Source: Spisula solida
Lineage: Eukaryota; Mollusca; Bivalvia; Venerida; Mactridae
Assembly: GCA_947247005.1 (NCBI GenBank)
Contig: OX365944.1
Coordinates: forward strand, 21,551,501-21,615,500
Direction: 5' to 3'
DNA length: 64,000 nt
The stretch's first letter is position 1; each line of letters begins with the position of its first letter. The translations under genes were made by a program, and so were the position numbers. Of this stretch, positions 8,864 through 58,402 are shown piece by piece. The notes beneath the pieces are model-generated. The model ran no database searches. It worked only from the letters and a program-made list of their open reading frames with translations, and was not told the origin of the DNA.

Positions 8864-8885
8864 TAGAAAATATGTTGATTTTTAT

Positions 8886-16394: not shown

Positions 16395-16400
16395 GTTACA
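16395..16400. other. Left target-site duplication GTTACA
   Basis: GTTACA immediately precedes the outer element's first base and recurs exactly at 58,397-58,402, directly after its last base. A 6-bp duplication marks the insertion of the whole 42-kb block. Confidence 0.85.
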
Positions 16401-17356
16401 TATGGAAAGCCGGAGTACACCATTTGCCAGTTCGCTCTTTAATCTATATGAATGTTCATTTTTTGTCAGTTCGTAAGTTCGCAAGTTCGTAAGTTCGCAT
16501 TTTGGCATGTTCGCAAGTTGGTAACTTCGTCACTTGTATAGTTCGGAAGTTTGTAATTTTGCAAGTTCGTAACATCGTCACTTGGACAGTTGGGAGCTTG
16601 GTTAGTTCGCAATTTCGTAAGTGCGTAACTTCAACAATTGAATGCGTCCACATTGCCCGTGTTCCGAACTTCCGAACCTGCTTATTCAAAATGTGCAAGT
16701 TCGCTACTACAGTCATAAACTTTACATCGGGGATATATATATGTGCAGATCTACATGATTTATTAGCAGAAGTATCCAACTTGCGAACTGACTAATTCGT
16801 AGCATTTCCTAACTAGCGTCTAAGTTCCGAACTGTCGAACTGCACATTTCGCACGTTCGTCAGTTCACACTGTGTGTGTATATGTGATTCTCACAAATCG
16901 TTTAAATTGTTGCATACTGACATTTATCCGTTTAAAAACAGAATTACAGCGTTACGGACATCGTTCTAAATACACGCTGGTTGTTTCCCCATTTATATCA
17001 CAAGATTATTGTACAAAAAGCGAGTTTAAAAATGAACTAGCGAACCATACAAATCTGCAGGTTCGTAGGTTCGTCAGTTCACTCTTTATGTATATGATTC
17101 TGTTCTATTCCATTCTCATATGAAGATAGAGTGAACTGTCAGATTTCGCAAATTTGAGCAATCTGTGAAATGTATCCGTTTTAAAACAGAATCACAACTT
17201 TAGTGACATCGTTCTTAGTACGTACTGCTAGTTACCCCATTTATATATCAAGAATATTGTACGAAAAAGCATTTTTGACGAACATGACAAATATTCATTT
17301 TTGCTAGTTCGACGAACATGACAATTAAAAATAAATTATTCATTTTGCTAGTTCGG
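16401..17356. repeat. Left terminal and subterminal GTTCG-octamer region, copy A
   Basis: After the terminal 60 bp the sequence becomes a run of 8-bp units (AGTTCGTA, AGTTCGCA) at 16,468-16,505, then degenerate GTTCG-bearing units to about 17,356. Because 3 x 8 = 24, the reverse strand shows an 8-residue peptide periodicity (LRT/FRT/LPT blocks) in a 107-codon frame at 16,456-16,779. I read this as a DNA repeat rather than a gene. Equivalent regions: 30,016-30,975 and inverted 56,069-57,026. Confidence 0.8.
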
Positions 17357-17842
17357 GATAATCCAATCAAACAAGCCGTACTAGCTGTGGTTAGGTGTGA
17401 AACCACGCCCCCTTCTCATGCGGAATCCTTTGGCAATATACTCCATGTTGTTCAACGTTCAACACACTTGATGCAAAATATTAAATCATTAAATTACTCG
17501 GTGATATATCTATTATATATCTTTTTCTTCGTTATAAGACAAGGAAGCACAGCCAAGCAGTACTTATATGTAGTGACAGAAGGTATTGTAAACTGCTAAT
17601 ATGTTCTTTCATTCATTATTTTCTGCCATTGTATTCGTCTCATATTTCCGTGGTACCCGTATTTCCATGGAAGAGATATTACAGTTGTGTGCACCATGCA
17701 CGCACCTTAGTCAACATAGTAAGTATAGTAAGTAATAAGTAAATTACGTATATAAATATATATTACGAGGCAAACATATTTTCAATGGTTTGAAAAGGTA
17801 AAAGTACAAGTCCTCGACCTTCGGGTTTCCCCCGCCCCATAG
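17357..17842. other. Element interior without recognised feature, copy A
   Basis: Contains a 93-codon open frame (17,318-17,599) with a hydrophobic C-terminal stretch that matches nothing I know. It persists in the other copies with a few changes, but they are too similar for that to mean selection. Confidence 0.4.
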
Positions 17843-18303
17843 GAGTGCACACCAGCAGTCAAGGAAGCCTCCTACAAAGCCATGGTTCGTCCCATCATTG
17901 AGAATGCGGCCAAAGTATGGGATCCTACCCAAGCGAGCCACATCAAGAGGCTTGAACAAGTACAACGCCGAGCAGCCCGATTTGTCCACAACGACTACTC
18001 AACAACGACCCCAGGATGCTAAAAGACCTGAAATGGGAGTCCCTTGAGAGTCGCCTAAGACAAAGCAAGCTGTGCATGGTGTACAAAATACAGAATGGGC
18101 TTGTAGACATCACGGCAGACACATACTTTCACAAGAGTGATGCCAAGACACGTGGCCAACACCACCTTTACTAGAAAAGGGTCCATGACCAGACCCTCGC
18201 CAGCACATTCTTTGTGAGGACTGTGCCAGAATGGAAACTCCTCCCAGCTTCGACGTTCTCGGCGCCAAGGTTAGACGCCTTCAAGACCCGACTACATGAG
18301 TAG
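17843..18303 (+). pseudogene. Jockey-type non-LTR retrotransposon RT C-terminus, copy A
   Basis: A decayed C-terminal reverse transcriptase segment. One frame reads VKEASYKAMVRPIIENAAKV, then LEQVQRRAARFVHNDYSTTT, then breaks with a stop at PGC*. After a frameshift it resumes with IQNGLVDITADTYFHKSD, then FFVRTVPEWKLLPAS and APRLDAFKTRLHE. These phrases are typical of the thumb and C-terminus of jockey/RTE-like RTs common in invertebrates. The stops and frameshifts show it is dead. Downstream sequence to about 18,450 ends in a GAAGAAGAAGAAGA simple tail, the probable 3' end of the retroelement. It was in the giant element before that duplicated. Confidence 0.85.
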
Positions 18304-18674
18304 ACATCAGTGTGTGTACATGTATATAGTTTTAAATCAGTTTTGGACTATTTTAAATTTTTGACTCTGTACACCATCACCATGCATATAAAGTTGAGCT
18401 AATTACGCCTATTAAGTGCCCAGCTCAGTACACGGAAGAAGAAGAAGATAGCTGGGGCTTGGTTTCAATTGAATGCTGCAATGCATTTAGATGTAGGTTA
18501 ATGTGTTGGAAAGGTTGTTGGTGTCCCAGTAACTGCAGACACTGGCCAATCATGCGATCTACTACTACTAGTCCTATCCACAGGTGTACCGCTGTATCTC
18601 TCTGGTATGTAGGGTCTAAAAGTAAACTAGACAGGCTGCTGTCTCCAAATGATGGTCCAGTCCCGTATGATAAC

Positions 18675-18880
18675 GTGGCAGGGTGGTCAAGTGGATAACA
18701 CTCTTGGCTACTGATCAAGAGGTTCCTGGTTCGAATCGCAGCCAGGGCACTTGGTCATTTCTGAAACGCTTTTCAGTGTTTCCCACCCAACTAGTGACAA
18801 TTAAACCGGTTGGAAACACAGAGGTAGTCTCGCATGTATCAGTGCTATACACCAGATTTATCAGTGATTTTTAGTACAAC
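18675..18880 (+). repeat. tRNA-derived SINE, copy A
   Basis: Positions 18,675-18,749 form a 75-base tRNA-like head: A-box TGGTCAAGTGG and B-box GGTTCGAATCG with normal spacing and complementary ends (GTGGC...GCCAGGGC region). A body with TTTCAGTGTTTCCCACCC follows to about 18,880. Pol III-transcribed when active. The anticodon arm is too degenerate to name a parent tRNA. Copies: 32,303 (+) and 54,786 (-). Confidence 0.8.
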
Positions 18881-19643
18881 ACTGACCATATCAGTTTTCT
18901 TTAGTAATTTGTAAAACCAATTTTGTGACAGTTGACCAAACTGATACACGTTTGTAAATATCACAATACCCCGGACACACTATAGCACTTTTGACTACCT
19001 CAGTTGACAGCAAACAAAGACCTAAATATACAAATATTGGAAAAATCTACTGGATCTCAAAATATCTTGCGGCAGTTTTCTGAAATCTCGCGAAATCTCG
19101 TTTGTTCTTAAAACCTTATAACTCCTGTTTTAATATACATAGAAAAAAACTACTAAATTAATGCAATATATTTATTATTCTGCTTTAAAATGATACCTAA
19201 TTTATTGACATCAGCCAAGGAATAAAATAATATACATCAAAGAGCCAGACCTACTCACAATTTAATGGAAATTCCAATTTTATCAGAAAATACCTGATCT
19301 GCCTCAGTCAAACAGTATTTTTTTGAAGTCTCTCAGAGATAGAAAAAAATAAGTTACATCATGCAGTAGAAAAAGCTTAGCTCTTCAAAATGAGATATTG
19401 GTCATTAAAAAAGGTTGACAAACAAAAGTGATCATGCAAAATATCATAATCTGCTGCATGCTATTTTGCCTTTTCTCTCTGTTTTCATTTAAGTGTCCAA
19501 TCTGTATATATTTAGGTCTTTGTCGCAAACAAACTACATTGACATTAGCTATATAGTATTGTCTCCACATTTTAAGTTTAATTGATTTGATTATTATAGT
19601 TTTCCTAACAAAAAATATTAATAATTGTATTTCATAATTTCAG
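18881..19643. other. Element interior, no gene seen (copy A)
   Basis: AT-rich sequence with no recognised domain; the same in copies B and C with small changes. Confidence 0.4.
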
Positions 19644-22600
19644 TAATACACAGATTTATGTTTGGGGTCCAGTGGACTAGAGAAGAGGATTGGTTCAGAG
19701 AACAGTTAGCTGACATGTTGTGAACTTGTGAAAGTGGAGACTAAGTCTAAGGTACAAATTTGACTCAATTTTGCTTTTGGTCTACTTGGTTCTTATCCAT
19801 GTAAGAAGTGTCCTACCATTGTGTTTTTATACCCCCCCCCCCCTGCACAATGTCAATGAGTTGTAAGGGGGTATACTGGATTCAGCTTGTCTGTCCGTAG
19901 ACACATGCTTGTGGACGCAACTTCTCCTACAGTTTTTGCAGCATTTCCTTCAAACTTTAACTGATGCACAACCTCAACATGTAGATGTGCATAAAATAAG
20001 AATAAGCTGCAATGATTTTTGCCACGTGGGGGTATTTTAGTCTGACGAATGGAGACAGTTGTAGTTGGTCAAGTCACAGGGTATTGAAACATGTTTTGGT
20101 TAAATGGTGTCTTATAAAATAAATTTTACAATGTCTTGTTATACGTGATATAATCTATATGAAACTTGGTCACTATGATCATCTCAACAAAATCTGTATT
20201 TTGATTAATTAGCATATTTTATTTTACCCCTACTACATGTAGGTTAGTCTAGTTATTTTTTTATCAATTTTCAGGCCATTTTATCTAAATGCGGATGTCT
20301 GAATGTAAGTTCTGCAATCATGATGTGTGACATGGTGCCAATAATCTGGATTGTAAGTTCATATGCACTTTCATACTTAATACATGTATACTTTATATTT
20401 GTATATATGCAATGTTTTTGCATTTCTTTCATTTTATTGTTAACCTTACACGAGCTTTCCATTTGTTGTTTGGCATTGGGACATCTGACAGTATTGAAAT
20501 GGATAATTTACCCTTTCACATTGGCTTGGTCCCATGCAGTCATTAAAAAGAGTTTGTCACCATACTCCCTGATACAAAGTATATCAGGGGCAACATTGGA
20601 GTCAAGCTTGAGGTCGGTCAGTTGTTTGGTCCAGCAAATTTTGTTCAGGCTATTTCTTAGTAACCAATTGTTGGATTTCAACACACTTTGCATGACTGAT
20701 CAGTACCAAGCCGAGTTGTGAACATCGTCGGCACACTTGGTCTGATTATTTTTAAGGGAGTTATTGCCCTTTGTTTTTTTATCCTAACAAATGTTGTCCT
20801 CACTATTTCTTTTCATCATTATTTGGATTTTAACAAAACATTCAGTAACTGATCAGCACCAAGTCATATCAATTTTAAGGGAGTTATGGCCCTTTGTTTT
20901 TGACACTGATTTTGTTTGGTTGGATTTCAATGAAACTTTGCATGACTGATCCAGATTCAGTGGATAGTCAAATAATGATAACTGCATGCATAGTAGTACA
21001 CAGTACTAAGTATCAAAACGTAAATTTACTCAGAACATGATTGTGTGCCTCATATAATACAGTTAGAGATTACATTTATTTCTATGTGTCTATTCTCATG
21101 TATATTGTTTGTACATGTATACTAATTAATACATTACATTTCACTTTCAGGCTTTGTTGGCATCAATTATGAATCATGTCAGTAACAAACAGGGTTCTAT
21201 GACAATGATATCATATTCATTATGTCATAGAAAAGAGACAGCAAATTTTAGTTGAGGCCTACTTCATATACACTAAGTGCTACAGATAGTCAAACAGACT
21301 TTAGATGTACAATGACAGTGGTATTCCACATATTAAATATTTTATCAGTAAGTAATCATATTTGTTTTTCAAATGCATAAGTATGTCTCCCACATATCGG
21401 TATAATATTATTGTGTCTGGGGGACAGGCAAATTGATTTTGTCTCTCTGGATGGATGTCACAAATTGTGTCCACACTATTTCTCCTTAACCATTGGTTGT
21501 ATTTCAATGCAACTTCACATGAAGTACCTACCTAGTTGTTCATATTGTCAGGAATTATATGTTGTATTTTGGGGGTAAAAACCCCTTCTAAATTTACTTT
21601 TTGGGTCAACAAATATTACAGTAACAATTTAAATTGTGTGTTTATAATAATAAATATAATCTGTGGAATAAGTTTTTCGTATCATAGTTGATTTATCACA
21701 TAACCTGCTGCAGCCTAGCTGTGCCATAAAGATGTGCCGGAAATTGCTCTCAGAAGGTTAGCCAATTCCAACTTCGTCAAGACTTTTAGCTCATTGTACC
21801 GCTAAATTTTGGTTGAAACATACCTAGTATCACAACATTATCATTTTGAAAGACACATGTAATGAGCCTTCTCTATGTGAAAGGTTATGTGATAAGAAGA
21901 ATCTTCCATTCTTACAATATTTGAGACAAAACAAAAAATAAAAAGTGATAGTGTGACTTTTAACATGTTTAACATTCACAAGAAGTGGTGTTGTAGATAG
22001 CAACAGTACTTTCAAAGTTACTATGCTTAATGTAAATTAAGTAATTGAAATTATTGTTTAAAATATCTTCATAATTTACAGCTTATCTGGTAGAACCATT
22101 AAGACGCCACATGGATTAAACATCATTTGGTGTGAATACATTGTAATTAGGAAACTACATCAGACAAGAAAGCTTCAACAACCATCTCAAGTGTGTGCTC
22201 TAAACCAGGTATCTATTCTGTTTTATAATCAGTGTTAACTAAGAACATGTTGTGACAAAGACAGTTATCTGACAACTTTAAGCTTTTTGGCTTCATGCAT
22301 TTTCATAAAAGAGTATTATTGACACTGCTTGCGCTTATTTATTATGACACAGTACTTAAATTATCCTCAAGAAACAACTGACACTATGTCCTGAGAAATG
22401 ATTTTGGATTTGAACCTAAGCCCTTAACCCATTCATTTAGTACACTATGGACTACATACATAACAGGCAGATACTAATAAATGTATTGATAATTTCTGTG
22501 TTAAATATTCAATCTTTATTTATTTGCATGTATGTTATGATATATGTTTTTGATCTCATTAATTTTGTCTCCTGGGGAGACATATTGATTTTTACTGTCA

Positions 22601-23060
22601 CAAAGTTTGTCTGCGTCTTTTTTTCTTAACCACTGGCTCGATTTCAATGAAACTTCACATGAATGCTTTGTACCAAGCATTGTTGGACATTTGTTATAAT
22701 TGCATATTTTTTGTTTCAGGTGCAAAAGATTACAATTATGCAAATACAGGCATTTACTCCGTCTATAAACCAAATCACTGTACAACTTTTTGGGATACTA
22801 TACAATTCAACCTGTAGGACTTATTGTGATTGAAACATCTGTGATTTCCTTTCACTGTACAACTTATTGCAAGACTTCAATTCAACGTGTACTCCTTATT
22901 GCGATAACCGGAAGTTGACTCGTTTATACACTGTGATTAATGTATGTCTTCTATGCATATGTTCATATTTGAAGTCTGCTGTGAGAAGTGTGTTTGGAGC
23001 TGAAGTTTTGAAAAACAGTTCTACAATGTAATAACAAAATAAAGGATGTTGAATGTGCAA
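19644..23060 (+). other. Series of exon-like blocks (possible captured spliced transcript), copy A
   Basis: Blocks bounded by pyrimidine-AG and GT occur in order: 19,644-19,751 (TTTCAG|...AAG|GTACAA), 20,275-20,352 (TTTTCAG|...ATT|GTAAGT, open for 26 codons), a start at 21,151 (CACTTTCAG|GC), 22,082-22,208 (TTACAG|...CCAG|GTATCT, open for 42 codons in one frame) and 22,720 to about 23,060 (TTTGTTTCAG|GTGCAAAAG), containing AATAAA at 23,038. The open frame of the last block is broken in copies B and C by a 4-base deletion, so a protein is doubtful; a non-coding or pseudogenised spliced RNA is the more likely reading. The frame could not be joined across all blocks. Function unknown. Confidence 0.3.
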
Positions 23061-23440
23061 ATTCTATTGCTAACAGTGGAGTTATGGCTCTCTAAAATAT
23101 TTTTATCTAGAGTCATAAAGTGTAAACGACTGTTGGTTTGAAATGTATTGTACATTTGTGCATTACATGGTTTAATACTGTTATAAATGTGAACAATAGC
23201 AGCAGAGATATTGTCCATGGGCTATGAACAAAGAGTTAGGCCACAATGGGTTTTGTCTGTAAATATCAATTTAAGTAGAATGTCAGGACTGTTTGAAAAT
23301 TATTTCCTGATAAGCTGCATAATGTGTTCCAATATTGAGTATTGCCTGAGGTCGGTCGGTTTGTTGGGCTATGTATATTTGTCAGCGCTAATTCTCAGTA
23401 ACCATTGATTGGATTTCAATGAAACTATGTATGACTTATA
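20640..23440. repeat. Recurring GATTTCAATGAAACTT module, six degenerate copies in copy A
   Basis: A module of roughly 60 bp (AACCATTG-TTGGATTTCAATGAAACTT-CATGACTGATCAGTACCAAG) recurs at about 20,655, 20,835, 20,925, 21,485, 22,630 and 23,400 in varying states of decay. This looks like a common mollusc dispersed repeat that seeded several times or spread by local duplication. The other two large copies have it at matching places. Confidence 0.5.
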
Positions 23441-24031
23441 AGAACTATGTCTGGTTTTTCTACTTAAAAGTTTTGAAGGATTCATCAGTACCAAACCTAT
23501 GCTAAGTTTTGCACATCAGCATACTTCTAATGCTTGCAGTATCTGGGGTATTCATCACATTCAGTGTTATTTCTTGTTATAAGTAACATTGTATTAATGT
23601 ATCCTATGCAACAACTATTCTACAAATGGGTTTCACAACTTCATGATATGGTATTTTCTCCAATGGAAGTTATGTATGTGTATATTAGATGTTCCTTACT
23701 TGTTTGAATATACATGTAGGGTTAATTCAGTATTCAATCTACACTATAGGCAGAGAATTTGACACAACTCAACCTGCTATTGGCATAATTTCACAGCTAA
23801 TTTATTGTCTATATTTATAACCCCAGTTGTATGTTTTCATAAGGTGGAAGTATCACGAAGACGCGCGAGGTGTAATACCAACACAAATCTTAATCTAAAG
23901 GACCGATATTGCACAATTTGTTCGCAGAAATTTATAAATTCAAAGCAAGTACCTCGTAATATATTCATGCATTAAGGTCAGGATCAGGTCAAATTCTCTG
24001 TGCTATACTCGTCATACCAAATGTAGCATTT

Positions 24032-24456
24032 TTATGCCCCCCTATCGATAGATGGGGAGGCATGTAGTGATTCACCTGTCCGTCCGTCAGTTCGTCCGGG
24101 TTAACCCAAATTGACAGTTTCTTGTAGCATTATTATGGCTTGCTACAAAGCTTCCATACTTGCATGGATGTTGTATATGAACACTCTCCACACACCTGTT
24201 TCATTTGACACCATTTCGACCTTCACCTTGACCTAATTTGGACTTAGACTTAAGTGTCTAATTCTTGGTTAAACCAAATTGACAGTTTCGTATAACATCA
24301 TGTTCATCATGGCGTTGCCTTAAAACTTGGCATACTTGTTTACCATCATAAGCCCCTTACATTATCAAAGCCATGTAACACTATCCAACATTATTATAGA
24401 ACTATGGCCCCTAATTGACTTAGCTTTTTATGGGCAAGGCTTCCATGGGGGCATAA
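24032..24456. mobile_element. TTATGCCCCC-ended repeat, copy A (two internal units)
   Basis: Begins TTTATGCCCCCCTATCGATA and ends CATGGGGGCATAAGC, so it has short terminal inverted repeats TTATGCCCCC/GGGGGCATAA. The interior has CTGTCCGTCCGTC and tandem units of about 168-173 bp starting at TTAACCCAAATTGACAGTTT (24,101 and 24,269), each with a CTTCACCTTGACCTAA block (complement AGGTCAAGGTGAAG). Copies B and C have four units here. Confidence 0.7.
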
Positions 24457-24902
24457 GCGTTTATTGAACGCAGTCTTGTTATCCTTTGTAAGTGTTGAGA
24501 ACAGTAACCTTTTCAAAGTGTAGACTTTGTTCTCTATTAATGGAATAGTCTAACCTGTCTTTAGCAGCCATCCAATGCAAAGGGCCACCTTGGCTGTTCA
24601 AGTTCAGTGTACACTTAATGAAGATTTTGTGTTGATCTGATTGCAATGTTGATTACTTGTAGAAATTAGGGTTGGGTACCTGGAACCCAGATGTGCAAAA
24701 ACTGTCTCAATAAAGTGGTGATAATCTGTATGAATGAAATTCTTGTATTTTTTTTACTAAACCCTAAAGAATAAAGCAGTTGTCCCCTTAGATTAAGAAC
24801 AGAAATAGTGTTCTCAGGCTACTATCAGCATATTGACATGATGTTCTCAGGTCATGTGTTATCAGGCAGTTACCTTGGAAATTGCATGATAAAATGTGTA
24901 GT

Positions 24903-24974
24903 CGTGTCTGTGATCTAGTGCTTGGTGTGAAAGATTTGTAACATGGCCATTCAGGTTTGATTCCCGCTTGTGGC
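24903..24974 (+). repeat. tRNA-like SINE head, copy A
   Basis: A-box-like TGATCTAGTGCTTGG followed about 36 bases later by the B-box GGTTTGATTCC and a CTTGTGGCAAGTAATTC continuation, ending just left of the mariner MITE. A pol III-type SINE head; family unknown. Copies at about 39,390-39,461 (+) and 48,114-48,187 (-). Confidence 0.6.
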
Positions 24975-25064
24975 AAGTAATTCTCTTCAATGATGTTGAT
25001 TTTCCTCCACATGTGGAGAAGTTGCTCGTATCTTGTGGATGGATAAATATGTACTGGTTGAATA

Positions 25065-25396
25065 TGAGGGGTGATCAATATATTCGAGAACTTCCCTTCT
25101 AACCTTTTAAATATTGATTCTAGAACAATTAAATTACCAGGAAATGTAGATCTGTCAATTATCTAGCCTTTTAATTATTTAATTATATTGTGACCAAGGT
25201 GAAGCGCGCGGGTACTTGCTGCTCTAATGGTGGCGCTTGGAATGACGTCACATGATGACCAATGTCACACGCCCCTTGCATAAATAAAAAGATGTTATAA
25301 GTGCATTTGGTTGGCGATATCTTAGACTGAATGATGCTTTGCTGTCAAAACAAAATTGTTAGATGTAAAGTTCTCGAATTTATTGATCATCCCTCG
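25065..25396. mobile_element. 332-bp mariner-type MITE, copy A
   Basis: Flanked by TA (25,063-25,064, 25,397-25,398), with inverted ends GAGGGGTGATCAATATATTC and the mirrored GAATTTATTGATCATCCCTC, each followed by GAGAACTT. Its terminus resembles that of the 963-bp element in the P4HA intron. The interior has a TGACGTCA word. No transposase. Confidence 0.85.
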
Positions 25397-25398
25397 TA

Positions 25399-26437
25399 CA
25401 GTCCAAAGAACCTGGTTAGGTGGTAGGTAATGGGTCACTGTATATAACTGCCAAATTGTTGAGAAACGGCAGCAAACCGTAATAAATCATCAATGTATCT
25501 TGGCCAAATAAAGAGCATGTGTGGTTCAAGTAACATGATTAAAATATTTGTCTTCATGTGGCAATTCTAGTTGCCATTGATTTTAGTTTCATTCAATTCA
25601 TGAAGTTTCACAGAATTTCTGATTTCAAGTAACTAATTCATTTGAAAGAATCATCTTTAGCAAAAATGTTAGTTCTTGCTATGTTAATAAAATCATGTCT
25701 GTGTGAAAAATCTAGTATAATTTGGCTTCCTAAATCACACATATTCTTTAGCCTTGTATGTTTGTCTGATGTGGTCTCCTGTAAGTCTAACAAAAATGGT
25801 TTGTTTCCGGTAACACACCCTAGCAGCTAGGAAATGTAGTTCAGTAAATATGGTTCAATTTTCTTTCACATAAAGAAAGAGCAAATACTCTTAGAAATTA
25901 AAGAAATAGTTGGGGATTGAAACATTTAGGACTGCAGAAAATTTGTAGGCCAGGGAAGAATACTGGAAACAAATATTTTTTTGTGTATATGTCTTGCGCT
26001 TTACATTCATCATCAGAATCTACCATCTAATACAAAAGTGAAAAATACAAGAAATTGATCAATGGTTTATTTTTTATTTGCGATACACAGTCAAACAAGT
26101 TTTATAACTTATTTAGCAATGTCATCATAACACTCGTCTAATCCGGGATGGTATCCATTCCCATAATTATATGAATGAGAAGCCAGTTTCTTCATTTCAA
26201 AAACGAAAAAAACACTGACACCACTTTATCTATAGATTGACACGATCACAGAGCAAACCCCTAGACCCGACACTAAATGCGTTACCACTGCCCAATAGGA
26301 TAGACTGTCTCGTATTCCAAACAAACATTTTTCATAGTATTTAGCTTGACTTTTCGAAGAAAAAAAGTAAAGCTATTGTCGTGACGGGATCGTCTGCATT
26401 AACTGGTTAAGTTTATTGTAAGAGTCATTTTCTCAAA
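25399..26437. other. Element interior, no gene; shared block near 26,050-26,200
   Basis: No coding region supported. The stretch at about 26,080-26,200 (AAACAAGTTTTATAACTTAT ... GAGAAGCCAGTTTC) resembles 61,790-61,890 outside the element, so it is a dispersed repeat. A 62-codon frame at 25,642-25,830 is not recognisable. Confidence 0.4.
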
Positions 26438-26790
26438 GGCTATCAAAGGTATCCACTTGAAACTCAACATAGTTATTCATCACCACAAGGGGAGCCCATA
26501 CTGACAAGGCTGGTAACTCTGTGACCTATATTTATGGAGTTATCAGTCCTTGTTTAGACTTAGTACATAGACTATCAATGGTACCCACTTGAAACTCAAA
26601 CGTAGTTACGCATCATCACAAGGTCCATACTGACAAGGCTTGTAACTGTGACCTATATGTATGAGTTATCTGCCCTCGTCACTTTTAGAATTTTCACTCA
26701 CAGATGAGCAAGGGTACTATCAAGTACGAGAAAGTCGAGCGTTCGGCACTCGTAGGCAGTGCTCTGTAGGCAGTGCTCCTTAATTTTCCA
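26438..26790. repeat. Tandem 132-bp repeat plus AGTACGAGAAAGTCGAG module, copy A
   Basis: Two degenerate copies of a 132-bp unit (CCACTTGAAACTCAA, CATACTGACAAGGCT and GTGACCTATAT landmarks) start at about 26,440 and 26,572. They are followed by GATGAGCAAGGGTACTATCA and AGTACGAGAAAGTCGAGCG, the module of the dispersed family at 1185 and 12,635. Corresponding places: 40,930-41,280 and, inverted, about 46,325-46,665. Confidence 0.55.
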
Positions 26791-27943
26791 AACACAGGTG
26801 GTATTTTCTTCATATATTCACACTCAATTGGTCTGTCATCCATCAGTTGACTGTAGTAGACATGTAGTGTTTGTCAGAGGAAGACAATGCACATTCTGTT
26901 GAAGAAAAAACAAGCATTAATACTTTCTAAAAGATTGCATAATAATTTATTACCCAGGGTTTTCAATAATTGTATTTTGGGTCAGTGGGGTCAAGGTCTA
27001 AAAATAGAAAAAGGTTTTTTTACTCAATTAGTTGAGTTTAGATTGATCCCTATTCATCAAACTTTGGGTATAGCAAGCTTGCATGGAGACGTACCCAATT
27101 TGGCTGCCTCATTAGGTGGACAATGCTCAGAAAACCTGGCATTGCGGCAAGGCCGTAGCTTGTTTTTTCAACAGTATTAAGAACAGCAAGAACTTTTTAC
27201 ATATCTGCTATATATATACTTGCTACCATGAACTCAAAAGTTCTTGATCTTTAACTGCTGAACATTTTCACTTTATGAACTTGTTATTTCATGGAACCGC
27301 ATTTCTTGAACTATATGTACTAGTATATTATGTTCAAGAAGTTTAAGGGTAAATACCTGTAAGACCAAAACAAATCACTATTGTGGTTCTGGTAACATGC
27401 TTAAACATGGTAGGAAATACATTTTATGGTTTTATACACTGGAAAATCACCGATCTGCACCGACTTTTTACAAAATACCAATGAATTGTTTATTGTATGG
27501 GCACGAAATTTGGGTCAGTCGGTTTACTAGAACCACATTATCGATATAATTTGGCCTAATGAACTTGGCAAACTTAAGTTTTATGCCTCCTTAATCTTAA
27601 TGAAGCTTAGTCACAATGATCATCTTGTGACAAAGAGTGATCATCAAAACTCAACGGTGAATTTGAGGGCCCATACAAGGTGAGCTAAAAAGTGGTGATT
27701 GCGTACTTTAACTTTACCTGAAGTGTAATGTTTCGTTGGACTGGAGCTTTGTTCAAGAGCCCAAGATTTATATTTCGAGGCATGGTATAACTTCGGCCTT
27801 CTATCAAATGTTTCTTTCACAGTTGTTGGACTCATAACACACTGGTAACCAATCCATACATTCACCCAAAATACATCTTGAACTAGATCTGTTGATAACC
27901 AACTTCTGAAAAAGTAACATCAGGATATAATACATTTTTTACT
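26791..27943. other. Element interior, no gene supported (copy A)
   Basis: A frame at 26,887-27,180 (97 codons) is longer in copies B and C (119 and 121 codons) because of a one-base difference in a T run; unstable frame ends with no domain argue against a gene. Confidence 0.45.
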
Positions 27944-39461: not shown

Positions 39462-39546
39462 ATTCTCTTCAATGATGTTGATTTTCCTCCACATGTGGAG
39501 AAGTTGCTCGTATCTTGTGGATGGATAAATATGTACTGGTTGAATA

Positions 39547-47704: not shown

Positions 47705-48034
47705 CGAGGGATGATCAATAAATTCGAGAAATTTACATCTAACAATTTTGTTTTGACAGCAAAGCATCATTCAGTCTAAGATATCGCCAACCAAATGCAC
47801 TTATAACATCTTTTTATTTATGCAAGGGGCGTGTGACATTGGTCATCATGTGATGTCATTCCAAGCGCCACCATTAGAGCAGCAAGTACCAGCGCGCTTC
47901 ACCTTGGTCACAATATAATTAAATAATTAAAAGGCTAGATAATTGACAGATCTACATTTCCTGGTAATTTAATTGTTCTAGAATCAATATTTAAAAGGTT
48001 AGAAGGGAAGTTCTCGAATATATTGATCACTCCA
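47705..48034. mobile_element. Mariner-type MITE, copy C
   Basis: Inverted counterpart of 25,065-25,396. Its ends have accumulated a few changes (CACTCCATA at the right end). Confidence 0.8.
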
Positions 48035-48113
48035 TATTCAACCAGTACATATTTATCCATCCACAAGATACGAGCAACTTCTCCACATGTGGAGGAAAAT
48101 CAACATCATTGAA

Positions 48114-48187
48114 GAGAATTACTTGCCACAAGCGGGAATCAAACCTGAATGGCCATGTTACAAATCTTTCACACCAAGCACTAGATC
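48114..48187 (-). repeat. tRNA-like SINE head, copy C
   Basis: Inverted counterpart of 24,903-24,974, next to the mariner MITE as in the other copies. Confidence 0.55.
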
Positions 48188-48673
48188 ACAGACACGACTA
48201 CACATTTTATCATGCAATTTCCAAGGTAACTGTCTGATAACAAATGACCTGAGAACATCATGTCAATATGCTGATAGTAGCCTGAGAACACTATTTCTGT
48301 TCTTAATCTAAGGGGACAACTGCTTTATTCTTTAGGGTTTAGTAAAAAAATACAAGAATTTCATTCATACAGATTATCACCACTTTATTGAGACAGTTTT
48401 TGCACATCTGGGTTCCAGGTACCCAACCCTAATTTCTACAAGTAATCAACATTGCAATCAGATCAACACAAAATCTTCATTACATTGCAATCAGATCAAC
48501 ACAAAATCTTCATTAAGTGTACACTGATCTTGAACAGCCAAGGTGGCCCTTTGCATTGGATGGCTGCTAAAGTCAGGTTAGACTATTCCATTAATAGAGA
48601 ACAAAGTCTACACTTTGAAAAGGTTACTGTTCTCAACACTTACAAAGGATAACAAGACTGCGTTCAATAAACG

Positions 48674-49440
48674 CTTATGCCCCCATGGAAGCCTTGCCCA
48701 TAAAAAGCTAAGTCAATTAGGGGCCATAGTTCTATAACAATGTTGGATAGTGTTACATGGCTTTGATAATGTAAGGGGCTTATGATAGTAAACAAGTATG
48801 CCAAGTTTTAAGGCAACGCCATGATGAACATGATGTTATACGAAACTGTCAATTTGGTTTAACCAAGAATTAGACACTTAAGTCTAAGTCCAAATTAGGT
48901 CAAGGTGAAGGTCGAAATGGTGTCAAATGAAACAGGTGTGTGGAGAGTGTTCATATACAACATCCATGCAAGTATGGAAGCTTTGTAGCAAGCCATAAAA
49001 ATGCTACAAGAAACGGTCAATTTGGGTTAACCAGAAATTTGACCCTTGAATAAGTCTAAGTCAAAATTTAGGTCAAGGTCAAAATGGGGTCAGGTGATAC
49101 AGGCGTGTAGAGAGTGTTCATATACAACATCCATGCAAGTATGAAAGCTTTGTAGCAAGCCATATTAATGCTAGAAGAAACGGTCAATTTGGGTTAACCA
49201 AGAATTTGGCCCTTCAATAAGTCTAAGTCCAAAATAAGGTCAAGGTGAAGGTCAAAATTAGGTCAGGTGATACAGGCGTGTGGAGAGTGTTCATATATAA
49301 CATCCATGCAAGTATGGAAGCTTTGTAGCAAGCCATAATAATGCTACAAGAAACTGTCAATTTGGGTTAACCCGGATGAACTGACTGACGGACAGGTGAA
49401 TCACTACATGCCTCCCCATCTATCGATAGGGGGGCATAAA
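48674..49440. mobile_element. TTATGCCCCC-ended repeat, copy C (four units)
   Basis: Inverted counterpart of 38,168-38,938 with the same expanded unit number. Confidence 0.82.
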
Positions 49441-50419
49441 AATGCTACATTTGGTATGATGAGTATAGCACAGAGAATTTGACCTGATCCTGACCTTAAT
49501 GCATGAATATATTACGAGGTACTTGCTTTGAATTTATAAATTTCTGCGAACAAATTGTGCAATATCGGTCCTTTAGATTAAGATTTGTGTTGATATTACA
49601 CCTCGCGCGTCTTCGTGATACTTCCACCTTATGAAAACATACAACTAGGGTTATAAATATAGACAATAAATTAGCTGTGAAATTATGCCAATAGCAGGTT
49701 GAGTTGTGTCAAATTCTCTGCCTATAGTGTAGATTGAATACTGAATTAACCCTACATGTATATTCAAACAAGTAAGGAACATCTAATATACACATACATA
49801 ACTTCCATTGGAGAAAATACCATATCATGAAGTTGTGAAACCCATTTGTAGAATAGTTGTGGCATAGGATACATTAATACAATGTTACTTATAACAAGAA
49901 ATAACACTGAATGTGATGAATACCCCAGATACTGCAAGCATTAGAAGTATGCTGATGTGCAAAACTTAGCATAGGTTTGGTACTGATGAATCCTTCAAAA
50001 CTTTTAAGTAGAAAAACCAGACATAGTTCTTATAAGTCATACATAGTTTCATTGAAATCCAATCAATGGTTACTGAGAATTAGCGCTGACAAATATACAT
50101 AGCCCAACAAACCGACCGACCTCAGGCAATACTCAATATTGGAACACATTATGCAGCTTATCAGGAAATAATTTTCAAACAGTCCTGACATTCTACTTAA
50201 ATTGAGATTTACAGACAAAACCCATTGTGGCCTAACTCTTTGTTCATAGCCCATGGACAATATCTCTGCTGCTATTGTTCACATTTATAACAGTATTAAA
50301 CCATGTAATGCACAAATGTACAATACATTTCAAACCAACAGTCGTTTACACTTTATGACTCTAGATAAAAATATTTTAGAGAGCCATAACTCCACTGTTA
50401 GCAATAGAATCTGCACATT

Positions 50420-53400
50420 CAACATCCTTTATTTTATTATTACATTGTAGAATTGTTTTTCAAAACTTCAGCTCCAAACACACTTCTCACAGCAGACTTC
50501 AAATATGAACATATGCATAGAAGACATACATTAATCACAGTGTATAAACGAGTCAACTTCCGGTTATCGCAATAAGGAGTACACGTTGAATTGAAGTCTT
50601 GCAAAAAGTTGTACAGTGAAAGGAAATCACAGATGTTTCAATCACAAAAAGTCCTACAGGTTGAATTGTATAGTATCCCAAAAAGTTGTACAGTGATTTG
50701 GTTTATAGACGGAGTAAATGCCTGTATTTGCATATAATCTTTTGCACCTGAAACAAAAAATATGCAATTATAACAAATGTCCAACAATGCTTGGTACAAA
50801 GCATTCATGTGAAGTTTCATTGAAATCGAGCCAGTGGTTAAGAAAAAAAGACGCAGACAAACTTTGTGACAGTAAAAATCAATATGTCTCCCCAGGAGAC
50901 AAAATTAATGAGATCAAAAACATATATCATAACATACATGCAAATAAATAAAGATTGAATATTTAACACAGAAATTATCAATACATTTATTAGTATCTGC
51001 CTGTTATGTATGTAGTCCATAGTGTACTAAATGAATGGGTTAAGGGCTTAGGTTCAAATCCAAAATCATTTCTCAGGACATAGTGTCAGTTGTTTCTTGA
51101 GGATAATTTAAGTACTGTGTTATAATAAATAAGCGCATGCAGTGTCAATAATACTCTTTTATGAAAATGCATGAAGCCAAAAAGCTTAAAGTTGTCAGAT
51201 AACTGTCTTTGTCACAACATGTTCTTAGTTAACACTGATTATAAAACAGAATAGATACCTGGTTTAGAGCACACACTTGAGATGGTTGTTGAAGCTTTCT
51301 TGTCTGATGTAGTTTCCTAATTACAATGTATTCGCACCAAATGATGTTTAATCCATGTGGCGTCTTAATGGTTCTACCAGATAAGCTGTAAATTTTGAAG
51401 ATATTTTAAACAATAATTTCAATTACTTAATTTACATTAAGCATAGTAACTTTGAAAGTACTGTTGCTATCTACAACACCACTTCTTGTGAATGTTAAAC
51501 ATGTTAAAAGTCACACTATCACTTTTTATTTTTTGTTTTGTCTCAAATATTGTAAGAATGGAAGATTCTTCTTATCACATAACCTTTCACATAGAGAAGG
51601 CTCATTACATGTGTCTTTCAAAATGATAATGTTGTGATACTAGGTATGTTTCAACCAAAATTTAGCGGTACAATGAGCTAAAAGTCTTGACGAAGTTGGA
51701 ATTGGCTAACCTTCTGAGAGCAATTTCCTGCACATCTTTATGGCACAGCTAGGCTGCAGCAGGTTATGTGATAAATCAACTATGATACGAAAAACTTATT
51801 CCACAGATTATATTTATTATTATAAACACACAATTTAAATTGTTACTGTAATATTTGTTGACCCAGAAAGTAAATTTAGAAGGTTTTTTTACCCCCAAAA
51901 TACAACATATAATTCCTGACAATATGAACAACTAGGTAGGTACTTCATGTGAAGTTGCATTGAAATACAACCAATGGTTAAGGAGAAATAGTGTGGACAC
52001 AATTTGTGACACCCATCCAGAGAGACAAAATCAATTTGCCTGTCCCCCTGACACAATAATATTATACCGATATGTGGGAGACATACTTATGCATTTGAAA
52101 AACAAATATGATTACTTACTGATAAAATATTTAATATGTGGAATACCACTGTCATTGTACATCTAAAGTCTGTTTGACTATCTGTAGCTCTTAGTGTATA
52201 TGAAGTAGGCCTCAACTAAAATTTCCTGTCTCTTTTCTATGACATAATGAATATGATATCATTGTCATAGAACCCTGTTTGTTACTGACATGATTCATAA
52301 TTGATGCCAACAAAGCCTGAAAGTGAAATGCAATGTATTAATTAGTATACATGTACAAACAATATACATGAGAATAGGCACATAGAAATAAATGTAATCT
52401 CTAACTGTATTATATGAGGCACACAATCATGTTCTGAGTAAATTTATGTTTTGATACTTAGTACTGTGTACTACTATGCATGCAGTTATCATTATTTGAC
52501 TATCCACTGAATCTGGATCAGTCATGCACAGTTTCATTGAAATCCAACCAAACAAAATCAGTGTCAAAAACAAAGGGCCATAACTCCCTTAAAATTGATA
52601 TGACTTGGTGCTGATCAGTTACTGAATGTTTTGTTAAAATCCAAATAATGATGAAAAGAAATAGTGAGGACAACATTTGTTAGGATAAAAAAACAAAGGG
52701 CAATAACTCCCTTAAAAATAATCAGACCAAGTGTGCCGACGATGTTCACAACTCGGCTTGGTACTGATCAGTCATGCAAAGTTTGTTGAAATCCAACAAT
52801 TGGTTACTAAGAAATAGCCTGAACAAAATTTGCTGGACCAAACAACTGACCGACCTCAAGCTTGACTCCAATGTTGCCCCTGATATACTTTGTATCAGGG
52901 AGTATGGTGACAAACTCTATTTAATGACTGCATGGGACCAAGCCAATGCGAAAGGGTAAATTATCCATTTCAATACTGTCAGATGTCCCAATGCCAAACA
53001 ACAAATGGAAAGCTCATGTAAGGTTAACAATAAAATGAAAGAAATGCAAAAACATTGCATATATACAAATATAAAGTATACATGTATTAAGTATGAAAGT
53101 GCATATGAACTTACAATCCAGATTATTGGCACCATGTCACACATCATGATTGCAGAACTTACATTCAGACATCCGCATTTAGATAAAATGGCCTGAAAAT
53201 TGATAAAAAAATAACTAGACTAACCTACATGTAGTAGGGGTAAAATAAAATATGCTAATTAATCAAAATACAGATTTTGTTGAGATGATCATAGTGACCA
53301 AGTTTCATATAGATTATATCACGTATAACAAGACATTGTAAAATTTATTTTATAAGACACCATTTAACCAAAATATGTTTCAATACCCTGTGACTTGACC

Positions 53401-53850
53401 AACTACAACTGTCTCCATTCGTCAGACTAAAATACCCCCACGTGGCAAAAATCATTGCAGCTTATTCTTATTTTATGCACATCTACATGTTGAGGTTGTG
53501 CATCAGTTAAAGTTTGAAGGAAATGCTGCAAAAACTGTAGGAGAAGTTGCGTCCACAAGCATGTGTCTACGGACAGACAAGCTGAACCCAGTATACCCCC
53601 TTACAACTCATTGACATTGTGCGGCGGGGTATAAAAACACAATGGTAGGACACTTCTTACATGGATAAGAACCAAGTAGACCAAAAGCAAAATTGAGTAA
53701 AATTTGTACCTTAGACTTAGTCTCCACTTTCACAAGTTCACAACATGTCAGCTAACTGTTCTCTGAACCAATCCTCTTCTCCAGTGCACTGGACCCCAAA
53801 CATAAATCTGTGTATTACTGAAATTATGAAATACAATTATTAATAATTTT
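50420..53850 (-). other. Exon-like blocks, copy C
   Basis: Inverted counterpart of 33,268-37,190, without the 506-bp MITE. The same AG and GT borders are visible on the minus strand. Confidence 0.28.
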
Positions 53851-54579
53851 TGTTAGGAAAACTATAATAATCAAATCAATTAAACTTAAAATGTGGAGAC
53901 AATACTATATAGCTAATGTCAATGTAGTTTGTTTGCGACAAAGACCTAAATATATACAGATTGGACACTTAATTGAAAACAGAGAGAAAAGGCAAAATAG
54001 CATGCAGCAGATTATGATATTTTGCATGATCACTTTTGTTTGTCAACCTTTTTTAATGACCAATATCACATTTTGAAGAGCTAAGCTTTTTCTACTGCAT
54101 GATGTAACTTATTTTTTTCTATCTCTGAGAGGCTTCAAAAAAATACTGTTTGACTGAGGCAGATCAGGTATTTTCTGATAAAATTGGAATTTCCATTAAA
54201 TTGGGAGTAGGTCTGGCTCTTTGATGTATATTATTTTATTCTTTGACTGATTTCAATAAATTAGGTATCATTTTAAAGCAGAATAATAAATATATTCCAT
54301 TAATTTAGTAGTTTTTTCCTATGTATATTAAAACAGGAGTTATAAGGTTTTAAGAACAAACGAGATTTTGCGAGATTTCAGAAAACTGCCGCAAGATATT
54401 TTGAGATCCAGTAGATTTTTCCAATATTTGTATATTAAGGTCTTTGTTTGCTGTCAACTGAGGTAGTCAAAAGTGCTATAGTGTGTCCGGGGTAATGTGA
54501 TATTTACAAACGTGTATCAGTTTGGTCAACTGTCACAAAATTGGTTTTACAAATTACTAAAGAAAACTGATATGGTCAG

Positions 54580-54786
54580 TGTTGTACTAAAAATCACTGC
54601 TAAATCTGGTGTATAGCACTGATACATGCGAGACTACCTCTGTGTTTCCAACCGGTTTAATTGTCACTAGTTGGGTGGGAAACACTGAAAAGCGTTTCAG
54701 AAATGACCAAGTGCCCTGGCTGCGATTCGAACCAGGAACCTCTTGATCAGTAGCCAAGAGTGTTATCCACTTGACCACCCTGCCAC
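54580..54786 (-). repeat. tRNA-derived SINE, copy C
   Basis: The tRNA-like head lies at 54,712-54,786 (B-box complement CGATTCGAACC); the body extends left. Confidence 0.8.
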
Positions 54787-55164
54787 GTTATCATACGGGA
54801 CTGGACCTTCAGCAGACATTTGGAGACAGCAGCCTGTCTAGTTTACTTTTAGACCCTACATACCAGAGAGATACAGCGGTACACCTGTGGATAGGACTAG
54901 TAGTCTAGATCGCATGATTGGCAAGTGTCTGCAGTTACTGGGACACCAACAACCTTTCCAACACATTAACCTACATCTAAATGCATTGCAGCATTCAATT
55001 GAAACCAAGCCCCAGCTATCTTATTCTTCTTCCGTGTACTGAGCTGGGCACTTAATAGGCGTAATTAGCTCAACTTTATATGCATGGTGATGGTGTACAG
55101 AGTCAAAAATTTAAAATAGTCCAAAACTGATTTAAAACTATATACATGTACACAGCACTGATGT

Positions 55165-55628
55165 CTACTCATGTAGTCGGGTCTTGAAGGCGTCTAACCT
55201 TGGCGCCGAGAACGTCGAAGCTGGGAGGAGTTTCCATTCTGGCACAGTCCTCACAAAGAATGTGCTGGCGAGGGTCTGGTCATGGACCCTTTTCTAGTAA
55301 AGGCGGTGTTGGCCACGTGTCTTGGCATCACTCTTGTGAAAGTATGTGTCTGCCGTGATGTCTACAAGCCCATTCTGTATTTTGTACACCATGCACAGCC
55401 TGCTTTGTCTACGGCGACTCTCAAGGGACTCCCATTTCAGGTCTTTTAGCATCCTGGGGTCGTTGTTGAGTAGTCGTTGTGGACAAATTGGGCTGCTCGG
55501 CGTTGTACTTGTTCAAGCCTCTTGATGTGGCTCGCTTGGGTAGGATCCCATACTTTGGCTGCATTCTCAATGATGGGACGAACCATGGCTTTGTAGGAGG
55601 CTTCCTTGACTGCTGGTGTGCACTCCTA
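55165..55628 (-). pseudogene. Jockey-type RT C-terminal relic, copy C
   Basis: Same decayed RT C-terminus on the minus strand. Immediately beyond its 5' end a stretch of roughly 45 bases present in copies A and B is missing (CACTCCTATTGAACCATTG junction at about 55,621). Confidence 0.83.
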
Positions 55629-56068
55629 TTGAACCATTGAAAATATGTTTGCCTCGTAATATATATTTATATACGTAATTTACTTATTACTTTATTTACT
55701 TACTATGTTGACTAAGGTGCGTGCATGGTGCACACAACTGTAATATCTCTTCCACGAAAATACGGGTACCACGGAAATATGAGACGAATACAATGGCAGA
55801 AAATAATCAATGAAAGAACATATTAGCAGTTTACAATACCTTCTGTCACTACATATAAGTACTGTTTGGCTGTGCTTCCTTGTCTTATAACGAAGAAAAA
55901 GATATATAATAGATATATCACCGAGTAATTTAATGATTTAATATTTTGCATCAAGCGTGTTGAACGTTGAACAACATGGAGTATATTGCCAAAGAATTCC
56001 GCATGAGAAGGGGGCGTGGTTTCATACCTAACCACAGCTAGTACGGCTTGTTTGATTGGATTATCACG

Positions 56069-57026
56069 AACTAGCAAAATGAATAATTCATTTTTAATTG
56101 TCATGTTCGTCGAACTAGCAAAAATGAATATTTGTCATGTTCGTCAAAAATGCTTTTTCGTAGAATATTCTTGATATATAAATGGGGTAACTAGCAGTAC
56201 GTACTGAGAACGATGTCACTAATGTTGTGATTCTGTTTTAAAACGGATACATTTCACAGATTGCTCAAATTTGCGAAATCTGACAGTTCACTCTATCTTC
56301 ATATGAGAATGGAATAGAACAGAATCATATACATAAAGAGTGAACTGACGAACCTACGAACCTGCAGATTTGTATGGTTCGCTAGTTCATTTTTAAACTT
56401 GCTTTTTGTACAATAATCTTGTGATATAAATGGGGAAACAACCAGCGTGTATTAAGAACGATGTCCGTAACGCTGTAATTCTGTTTTTAAACGGATAAAT
56501 GTCAGTATGCAACAATTTAAACGATTTGTGAGAATCATTATAACGTTACACACACAGTGTGAACTGACGAACGTGCGAAATGTGCAGTTCGACAGTTCGG
56601 AACTTAGACGCTAGTTAGGAAATGCTACGAATTAGTCAGTTCGCAAGTTGGATATACTTCTGCTAATAAATCATGTAGATCTGCACATATATATCCCCGA
56701 TGTAAAGTTTATGACTGTAGTAGCGAACTTGCACATTTTGAATAAGCAGGTTCGGAAGTTCGGAACACGGGCAATGTGGACGCATTCAATTGTTGAAGTT
56801 ACGCACTTACGAAATTGCGAACTAACCAAGCTCCAAACTGTCCAATTGACGATGTTACGAACTTGCAAAATTACAAACTTCCGAACTATACAAGTGACGA
56901 AGTTACCAACTTGCGAACATGCCAAAATGCGAACTTACGAACTTGCGAACTTACGAACTGACAAAAAATGAACATTCATATAGATTAAAGAGCGAACTTG
57001 CAAAAGGTGAACTCCGGCTTTCCGTA
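56069..57026. repeat. Terminal and GTTCG-octamer region, copy C (inverted)
   Basis: CGAACTTACGAACTTGCGAA units lead up to the terminus at 57,026. The plus-strand frame at 56,648-56,971 is the shadow of the octamers. Confidence 0.75.
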
Positions 57027-57170
57027 CAAAATGTCTAGTTCGTAAGTTCATAGAAAACTCGCTTTTTCGTACAATAATCCTGATTCAAGCATGTGGAAAC
57101 GATTAGTACGTGTTTACAACGACGTCCGTAACGTTCTCACCTTTTTTCAAGCGGGAATATATCATAGATT
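57027..57170. repeat. 144-bp direct repeat flanking copy C (right)
   Basis: Second copy of 43,972-44,115. After it the sequence continues with TTTATATAATGG, as copy A does at 29,640. Confidence 0.9.
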
Positions 57171-57858
57171 TTTATATAATGGCAAATTAGATAGTTCACA
57201 CTGGTATTCATATGGGAATTGAATAGAACAGAGTCGCCGTTCGCATGTTCGGTTGCATAGTTCGTCAATTCGTCATTTCGACGAACTTGACAAACTTATA
57301 GGTCTGTAGTGTTTAACTCTACAAGCTTATAGGTTGGTAAAGTTTAACTGTACAAGCTTATAGGTTGGTAGAGTTGGACAGTAGCAGTAGTAACGTTAGA
57401 GAATTAACGCTGTAGAGTTAAACTTGCAGATATGTATGTAAGTCGCGAGTTGACAGTGTACCTAATATTAGCGAGTTAAACGTGCAGAATCTGTATACCA
57501 GCAGGTTTAAAATGTGTATTGGTGAGAGTCGGATAAATGACAATTGCGGTCTGAATAATGCGCTTATATTTCGCTTTAAACTAGCTTGCGGATTTGGATT
57601 AGGCAGGTTCGGAGGTTGGCGGGTTAGGCACTCTGGTACATTGAGGCTTTTGTTATAGTATTGAACTTGCGAACTGTATTATTTTAAATAGACAGTTCGT
57701 CACTTCGGAACTTTCACATTGTGGAAATATTGAACTTACGAACTCGCGAACTGTACAAGTGACGAAGTTACCAACTTGCGAACTTACAAATTGTCGAAAA
57801 TGAACTTTCATATAGATTATAGAGCGAACTTGCAAAAGGTGAAGTCCGGCTTTCCATA
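57171..57858. repeat. Right part of the inner element
   Basis: Continues the right subterminal region (matching 29,640-30,015, then GGTCTGAATAATGCGC, which in the outer copy is at 58,086). It lacks a short stretch of about 14 bp present in copy A at about 29,950. It ends in the first terminal CCGGCTTTCCATA at 57,858. No gene. Confidence 0.85.
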
Positions 57859-58079
57859 ACATTGAGGCTTTTGTTATAGTATTGAACTTGCGAACTGTAT
57901 TATTTTAAATAGACAGTTCGTCACTTCGGAACTTTCACATTGTGGAAATATTGAACTTACGAACTCGCGAACTGTACAAGTGACGAAGTTACCAACTTGC
58001 GAACTTACAAACTGTCGAAAATGAACTTTCATATAGATTATAGAGCGAACTTGCAAAAGGTGAAGTCCGGCTTTCCATA
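57638..58079. repeat. 221-bp tandem duplication of the right terminus
   Basis: 57,638-57,858 and 57,859-58,079 are near-identical 221-bp units, each from ACATTGAGGCTTTTG to the terminal CTTTCCATA. The outer element's own end (58,086-58,396) has a single unit. The inner element thus carries two consecutive right ends. Confidence 0.93.
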
Positions 58080-58396
58080 AATTGCGGTCTGAATAATGCG
58101 CTTATATTTCGCTTTAAACTAGCTTGCGGATTTGGATTAGGCAGGTTCGGAGGTTGGCGGGTTAGGCACTCTGGTACACTGAGGCTTTTGTTATAGTATT
58201 GAACTTGCGAACTGTATTATTTTAAATAGACAGTTCGTCACTTCGGAACTTTCACATTGTGGAAATATTGAACTTACGAACTCGCGAACTGTACAAGTGA
58301 CGAAGTTACCAACTTGCGAACTTACAAACTGTCGAAAATGAACTTTCATATAGATTATAGAGCGAACTTGCAAAAGGTGAAGTCCGGCTTTCCATA
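58080..58396. repeat. Right terminus of the outer element
   Basis: AATTGC (second target copy), then GGTCTGAATAATGCGC through CGAAC-rich subterminal sequence to CCGGCTTTCCATA, followed by GTTACA. Confidence 0.88.
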
Positions 58397-58402
58397 GTTA
58401 CA
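58397..58402. other. Right target-site duplication GTTACA
   Basis: Pairs with 16,395-16,400. Confidence 0.85.

What the first reader, a model, noticed from the sequence alone, without database searches (positions are those of the whole stretch)
16395..58402. A 42-kb block is one giant TIR transposon family nested inside itself, with two independent 6-bp target duplications
Seen: TATGGAAAGCCGGA termini at 16,401 and 30,016 face inverted termini at 58,079 and 58,396. GTTACA flanks the outer pair and AATTGC flanks the inner pair. The uninterrupted AATTGCGGTCTG junction exists inside the inner copy, proving where the inner copy landed. The unit is about 14 kb, has no recognisable transposase, and carries a large non-coding cargo. 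Known: 6-bp duplications occur in Maverick/Polinton, Dada and IS3EU elements. Inference: this is an undescribed giant non-autonomous family mobilised in trans.
Basis: partly seen in the sequence, partly recalled or inferred. Interest (0 to 1): 0.92.

Follow-up and report, generated by a model that had tools for sequence, protein, structure and literature searches.

The report
Giant self-nesting clam DNA transposon
A 42-kb stretch of a clam chromosome is three near-identical copies of a roughly 14-kb jumping DNA that carries no recognisable gene, stacked one inside the other; its relatives in the genome have repeatedly landed in the same small region near one end of their own kind, which would make them a natural case of self-targeted transposition.

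Summary
An outer copy A (13,926 bp) has GTTACA on both sides and is split by an inner block (30016-58079) flanked by AATTGC; the unsplit AATTGCGGTCTG survives at 57542. The host is very probably Spisula solida, chromosome 1. The terminal 14-mer occurs 112 times in the genome (backwards control 0). Of 38 end pairs tested, 31 have an exact 6-bp duplication, 1 an exact 7-bp one, 1 a 6-bp one with a mismatch, 5 none; mispaired control 2 of 1406. TA..TA ends, 6-bp duplications and long inverted repeats match published IS3EU descriptions. No coding signal was found in the copies read, so movement in trans is inferred; no transposase was found. New here: 12 nested insertions all lie in about 550 bp (A 13081-13626) beside the right end, 8 with duplications on both sides, against about 0.05 expected. 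A and its inner copies are no closer than A and copies elsewhere. Most likely the transposition complex is drawn to resident right ends; that mechanism is inferred.

The parts
16395..16400 (.). Target duplication of outer copy A, left (GTTACA)
16401..30009 (+). Outer copy A, left part (A-coordinates 1-13609)
   Evidence: alignments to copies on other chromosomes
30010..30015 (.). Target duplication of inner copy B, left (AATTGC; A-coordinates 13610-13615)
30016..44114 (+). Copy B, left part; includes the intact CAAAAT site at 43972-43977 and about 137 bp beyond it
44115..57026 (-). Copy C, inverted; left terminus TACGG at 57026, right about 1.36 kb missing
57027..57032 (.). CAAAAT beside C's left terminus: one side of a third target duplication
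57027..58079 (+). Copy B, right part, ending in the right terminus
57638..58079 (+). 221-bp tandem duplication of B's right end (internal terminus at 57858)
58080..58085 (.). Target duplication of copy B, right (AATTGC)
58080..58396 (+). Outer copy A, right part (A-coordinates 13610-13926)
58397..58402 (.). Target duplication of copy A, right (GTTACA)
29481..30009 (+). Most of the self-insertion hot region in copy A (A-coordinates 13081-13609 of 13081-13626)

Best explanation
The block is three nested copies (A contains B, B contains an inverted C) of a young, giant, non-autonomous DNA transposon family of the IS3EU kind in Spisula solida. SHOWN: the copies have TATGG...CCATA ends (C: TACGG) and mostly 6-bp duplications; near-identical copies, mostly about 14 kb, sit on other chromosomes; no coding signal was found in those read; new copies have repeatedly landed in about 550 bp just inside the right end of resident copies. 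INFERRED: an IS3EU-type transposase supplied by another element cuts and inserts these elements in trans. That protein, bound to AGTTCG/CGAACT motif clusters near a resident copy's right end, draws an incoming element to the motif-poor gap between the clusters. C's lost right end arose from a failed one-ended excision or repair, which extended B past the site and trimmed C.
For: Ends and duplications: (31 of 38 pairs exact 6 bp; mispaired control 2 of 1406). Copy number: 112 exact 14-mers, control 0; 126 hits of a 21-mer with up to 2 mismatches, control 0. Similarity: (11 type-1 copies 98.9-99.9% alike over aligned bases; C8 and C9 copies 99.89%). No coding signal. IS3EU ends: PMC10045372 passages (complete families always TA..TA, TSDs usually 6 bp); PMC12730594 passages (IS3EU families of rust fungi with 6-bp TSDs, TIRs over 30 bp, TAYGG..CCRTA). 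Hot region: (19 of 97 examined ends belong to 11 nested insertions; window copy C is the 12th; all at A 13081-13626). Source of inner copies: (A-B 99.02%, A-C 99.00%; A to 8 copies on other chromosomes 99.03-99.44%). Motifs: (AGTTCG/CGAACT at 13017-13341 and 13738-13898, none in 13342-13737).
Against: No transposase was found: PF13683 gave 27 matches (150 of 277 candidates scored), 3 of 27 were read and all look like LTR-retrotransposon integrases. IS3EU membership rests on ends and duplications alone. Protein binding to the motifs is untested, the motif clustering has no shuffle control, and the left end carries 13 such motifs in its first 450 bp yet shows no nested insertion apart from the unclear C19 locus at A 187, so motifs alone do not explain the preference. 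The two CAAAAT insertions (window C, C11 middle) lie inside the first cluster and the C11 innermost one at its edge. 5 of 38 pairs lack any duplication (two the C16 pair, two the abutted C10 pair, one on C6). The two CAAAAT insertions share site and orientation and may be one inherited composite (could not decide). Only the window's nest was compared inner to outer over full length.
Confidence: 0.78

Rival explanations
1. Nesting comes from local hopping: a copy excises after replication and inserts into its own sister copy, so it is a by-product of proximity and not of attraction to family ends.
For: Many cut-and-paste elements hop locally (recalled); the nests are by definition at zero distance.
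Against: B and C are no closer to A (99.02% and 99.00%) than 8 copies on other chromosomes are (99.03-99.44%), while recent pairs reach 99.89% (window nest only). Local hopping does not explain why all 12 sites fall in about 550 bp of 13.9 kb (chance about 10^-16.6 if uniform, computed after the fact for 580 bp).
Confidence: 0.1
2. The right-end region is simply an open, promoter-like stretch that attracts insertions like other open chromatin; no protein tether is needed.
For: The duplications differ at all 8 nested sites seen on both sides, so the target is a region, not a sequence; genomic target preference is only weak (AT-rich core, T just outside, 64 flanks). The motif-rich left end is not a hot region.
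Against: 11 nested insertions stand beside 47 left and 44 right ends examined, although the region is a minute part of the genome; about 0.05 nests anywhere in the element were expected, assuming 50 insertions and 63 copies. Ordinary open chromatin elsewhere should absorb most insertions.
Confidence: 0.25
3. The unit belongs to another 6-bp superfamily (Polinton/Maverick, Dada) or to an unnamed one.
Against: TATGG..CCATA ends, 6-bp duplications and long TIRs match IS3EU descriptions. No long frame was seen in the unit, and none of 10 frames scanned passed a Pfam cut-off. Rfam and tRNA scans found no RNA gene in the window; other loci were not scanned for RNA genes.
Confidence: 0.15
4. The inner palindrome is an assembly or replication artefact and not a third insertion.
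For: B carries about 137 bp beyond the CAAAAT site, and C lacks its right end, which a simple insertion does not give.
Against: B and C differ by 0.8%; C's left terminus abuts CAAAAT; the C11 locus has an inverted copy at the same site with the 6-bp duplication on both sides. The genome note gives a HiFi assembly with QV 62.8 (PMC11101916 passages).
Confidence: 0.05

Closest known systems
IS3EU/GingerRoot DNA transposons
   Same: 6-bp target duplications, TA..TA ends of the TAYGG..CCRTA form, TIRs longer than 30 bp
   Different: About 14 kb with no coding signal found in the copies read; transposase untested; a self-insertion hot region is not mentioned in the passages read
Maize double Ds (one Ds inserted inverted in another; recalled, one search found no paper on it)
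   Same: An element nested in inverted orientation in its own kind (window B and C)
   Different: Ds is hAT with 8-bp duplications and is much shorter (recalled); here nesting recurs at many loci in one region
P element self-insertions (PMC4744444 passages)
   Same: A cut-and-paste element inserting into copies of itself
   Different: P elements make 8-bp duplications (recalled); the passages read describe single self-insertions of a laboratory construct, not a natural hot region
Bacterial IS3/IS30 insertion next to their own ends (recalled)
   Same: Target choice next to family ends; one head-to-tail pair here has directly abutted termini (C10)
   Different: Bacterial; here insertions lie about 300-850 bp inside the right end

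Membership tests
IS3EU | 6-bp target duplication | tested here: met
   31 of 38 pairs exact 6 bp, 1 with one mismatch, 1 exact 7 bp, 5 none; mispaired control 2 of 1406
IS3EU | Termini TA..TA (TAYGG..CCRTA in the rust-fungus families) | tested here: met
   TATGG..CCATA at both ends of A and B; the 91 L- and R-type ends share it, but were selected by it; window C reads TACGG
IS3EU | TIR longer than 30 bp | tested here: met
   A's first 128 bp against its right end: 129 aligned bases, 84% identical
IS3EU | IS3EU-type DDD/E transposase in an autonomous relative with the same ends | tested here: inconclusive
   PF13683 search: 27 matches, 3 read, all LTR-type integrases by my judgement; four related-end loci read for 1.5-6.5 kb, 5 frames scanned, no transposase
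Polinton/Maverick | Protein-primed polymerase B and retroviral-type integrase genes (recalled) | tested here: not met
   No frame over 197 aa in the 10 copy regions read or over 157 aa in the window copies; none of 10 frames scanned passed a Pfam cut-off
Dada | Insertion into multicopy RNA genes (recalled) | tested here: inconclusive
   No tRNA or Rfam gene in the window; flanks of the other copies were not scanned for RNA genes
Non-autonomous DNA transposon | No transposase in the element, but shared ends with target duplications | tested here: met
   for the copies read

The most novel reading that the evidence does not exclude
A eukaryotic transposon family that homes on itself: the transposition complex recognises the right ends of resident copies and inserts new giant copies beside them, building growing chains (three deep in the window and at C11) that use their own dispensable DNA as landing pads and so spare host genes.
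Probability: 0.4. Interest if true: 0.75.

Novelty: new variant of a known kind. Interest (0 to 1): 0.6.

Why it matters
Non-autonomous cut-and-paste elements are usually short (general knowledge); a roughly 14-kb family with no coding signal whose copies on different chromosomes are up to 99.89% alike shows that size and coding content need not limit mobilisation. A natural, repeated, region-specific self-insertion makes target choice testable: if a bound transposase steers insertion, moving the right end should move the target. Nested giant inverted copies also seed large palindromes and rearrangements.

Tried and rejected
Inner block as one palindromic 28-kb transposon: rejected in favour of B plus inverted C, because C's terminus abuts CAAAAT and the intact site exists in A and B.

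A hidden coding gene: frames, Pfam on 10 frames (best hits below cut-off) and a codon-position test of 427 type 1/type 2 differences (lowest p 0.035 among 421 overlapping windows) gave nothing. The 140-aa and 154-aa frames were not scanned.

Autonomous partner: PF13683 found LTR-type integrases in the 3 of 27 places read (label from my own knowledge). Four other loci share only about 52-140 bp of the end, with different interiors; no transposase was seen in the stretches read. Whether the CAAAAT insertions in the window and on C11 are one event was left open. Literature: the listings of searches on self-insertion (12 of 311 shown, 12 of 37, 4 of 4) showed no title or abstract on such a hot region; passages of PMC4744444 and of a bivalve transposon survey, PMC10294476 (IS3EU and Spisula 0 occurrences), did not either. 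One search failed.

Dropped before counts: the left end C5:1812223, paired with an end that belongs to its inner copy; single ends without a found partner; the C18, C10 (3102348) and C5 (1812223) outer copies, whose second ends were not found. by itself gave 21 of 27 pairs.

Full report
WHAT IS THERE. The window holds an outer element A from 16401 to 58396, with GTTACA on both sides, interrupted at 30010-30015 (AATTGC) by an inner block ending at 58079 and followed by the second AATTGC. Without the inner block A is 13,926 bp. The hexamer and its neighbours, AATTGCGGTCTG, are uninterrupted at 57542 in the inner block's right end.

A THIRD COPY. The inner block is 28 kb. Self-comparison shows that 30016-44114 matches A in direct orientation, 44115-57026 matches A inverted, and 57027-58079 is again direct. 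At 57026 the inverted copy ends in TACGG, a left terminus with one change, directly beside CAAAAT; the same hexamer is uninterrupted in A (29481) and in B (43972). I read this as copy C inserted in inverted orientation into B. C has lost about 1.36 kb at its right end and B runs about 137 bp past the site, which fits a one-ended break that was extended from a homologous template and then joined (inference). B's right end also carries a 221-bp tandem duplication.

THE FAMILY. The host assembly has 931,988,947 bases in 36 contigs. The terminal 14-mer occurs 112 times (57 + 55; control 0 + 0; 100 listed), and a 21-mer with up to 2 mismatches 126 times (59 + 67; control 0 + 0; 100 listed). I examined 97 distinct ends with at least 100 bp of flank: 47 left type, 44 right type, 6 with unrelated interior. 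Of 38 pairs of ends, chosen by position from the listed hits, 31 have an exact 6-bp duplication, 1 an exact 7-bp one, 1 a 6-bp one with a mismatch and 5 none; pairing ends wrongly gives 2 of 1406. One left end that one search had paired with the end of its inner copy was dropped.

AGE AND CONTENT. Ten copy regions were read, some of them not to the end. Eleven type-1 copies, A, B and C included, are 98.9-99.9% alike over aligned bases; two on different chromosomes are 99.89% alike, so the family moved recently. An older type 2 (three of the ten) is about 96% alike in the one copy compared and lacks several segments. No frame exceeds 157 aa in the window copies or 197 aa in the ten. None of ten frames scanned passed a Pfam cut-off, and differences between the two types show no clear codon pattern.

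SELF-INSERTION. Flanks of all 97 ends were compared with A. 27 abut family sequence. Eight of those are not nests: a tandem duplication of a right end (one), a tandem duplication of a left end (one), an insertion into a repeat also present in A (two ends, C3), a directly abutted pair (two ends, C10) and a complex C19 locus (two ends, one at A 187 near the left end). The other 19 ends belong to 11 nested insertions, and window copy C is the twelfth. Eight have the duplication on both sides (one of them 7 bp), four were seen on one side only. All lie at A 13081-13626, about 300-850 bp from the right end: nine between 13437 and 13626, two at 13081 (CAAAAT) and one, less exactly placed, at about 13270-13363. 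One more insertion (C6) lies in the same region of a relative only 88% alike and has no duplication; it is not counted. Random insertion would give about 0.05 nests anywhere in the element, assuming 50 insertions and 63 copies; twelve of twelve within 580 bp has a chance of about 10^-16.6 if nests were uniform along the element, a figure computed after the region was seen. Both orientations occur. The two CAAAAT cases share site and orientation and may be one event.

HOW IT PROBABLY WORKS. The right end carries AGTTCG/CGAACT motifs at 13017-13341 and 13738-13898, with a gap between; nine of twelve nested insertions fall in that gap. I infer that transposase bound to the right end attracts incoming elements. 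A is no closer to its inner copies than to copies on other chromosomes (window only), which speaks against sister-chromatid hopping. Open chromatin is the main rival.

WHAT IT IS. Passages of two papers give IS3EU always TA..TA termini and usually 6-bp duplications (PMC10045372), and, for families of rust fungi, TIRs over 30 bp ending TAYGG..CCRTA (PMC12730594). The ends here meet all of these. The transposase, the remaining defining feature, was not found: PF13683 gave 27 places, of which I read 3, all LTR-type integrases by my own judgement. I therefore file it as IS3EU-like by ends, a new variant: giant, with no coding signal found, and with a self-insertion hot region. The listings for IS3EU with Mollusca (3 papers), giant non-autonomous elements (15 of 46 shown) and self-insertion showed no such family; Repbase and Dfam were not available.

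Noticed in passing
G000 C10:7043184-7043211 (L064): Two copies directly abutted, right terminus on left terminus with no spacer (CCATATATGG); the outer ends have no matching hexamers.
   Followed up: partly
G000 C16:9245387-9277233 (L041, L044): Two copies facing each other whose left-end flanks are 100% identical over 287 bp in inverted orientation, while the right flanks differ; neither copy has a matching duplication.
   Followed up: partly
L112 (C9:36690926): A 52-bp family-like end followed within about 100 bp by an exon-like frame weakly matching the SRCR domain (E 0.0005, below cut-off).
   Followed up: partly
L109, L110, L111: Loci sharing about 56-140 bp of the end but with different interiors: related families, extent unknown.
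   Followed up: partly
window 6950-8140 (+): Prolyl 4-hydroxylase alpha-like frame (best hit 37% identity), likely a host gene beside the block.
   Followed up: partly
window 14661-16227 and 59726-61136: Minisatellites of 19-bp (about 82 copies) and 21-bp (about 68 copies) units on either side of the block; also 58-bp x 10 at 3359-3934.
   Followed up: no
window 11284-11898 (-): A 204-aa frame that looks like a reverse-transcriptase element fragment (label recalled, not searched).
   Followed up: no
window 38236-38771: A 173-bp tandem unit inside the element is present about once in A and three times in B; a similar unit flanks the C3 copy L011/L012.
   Followed up: partly
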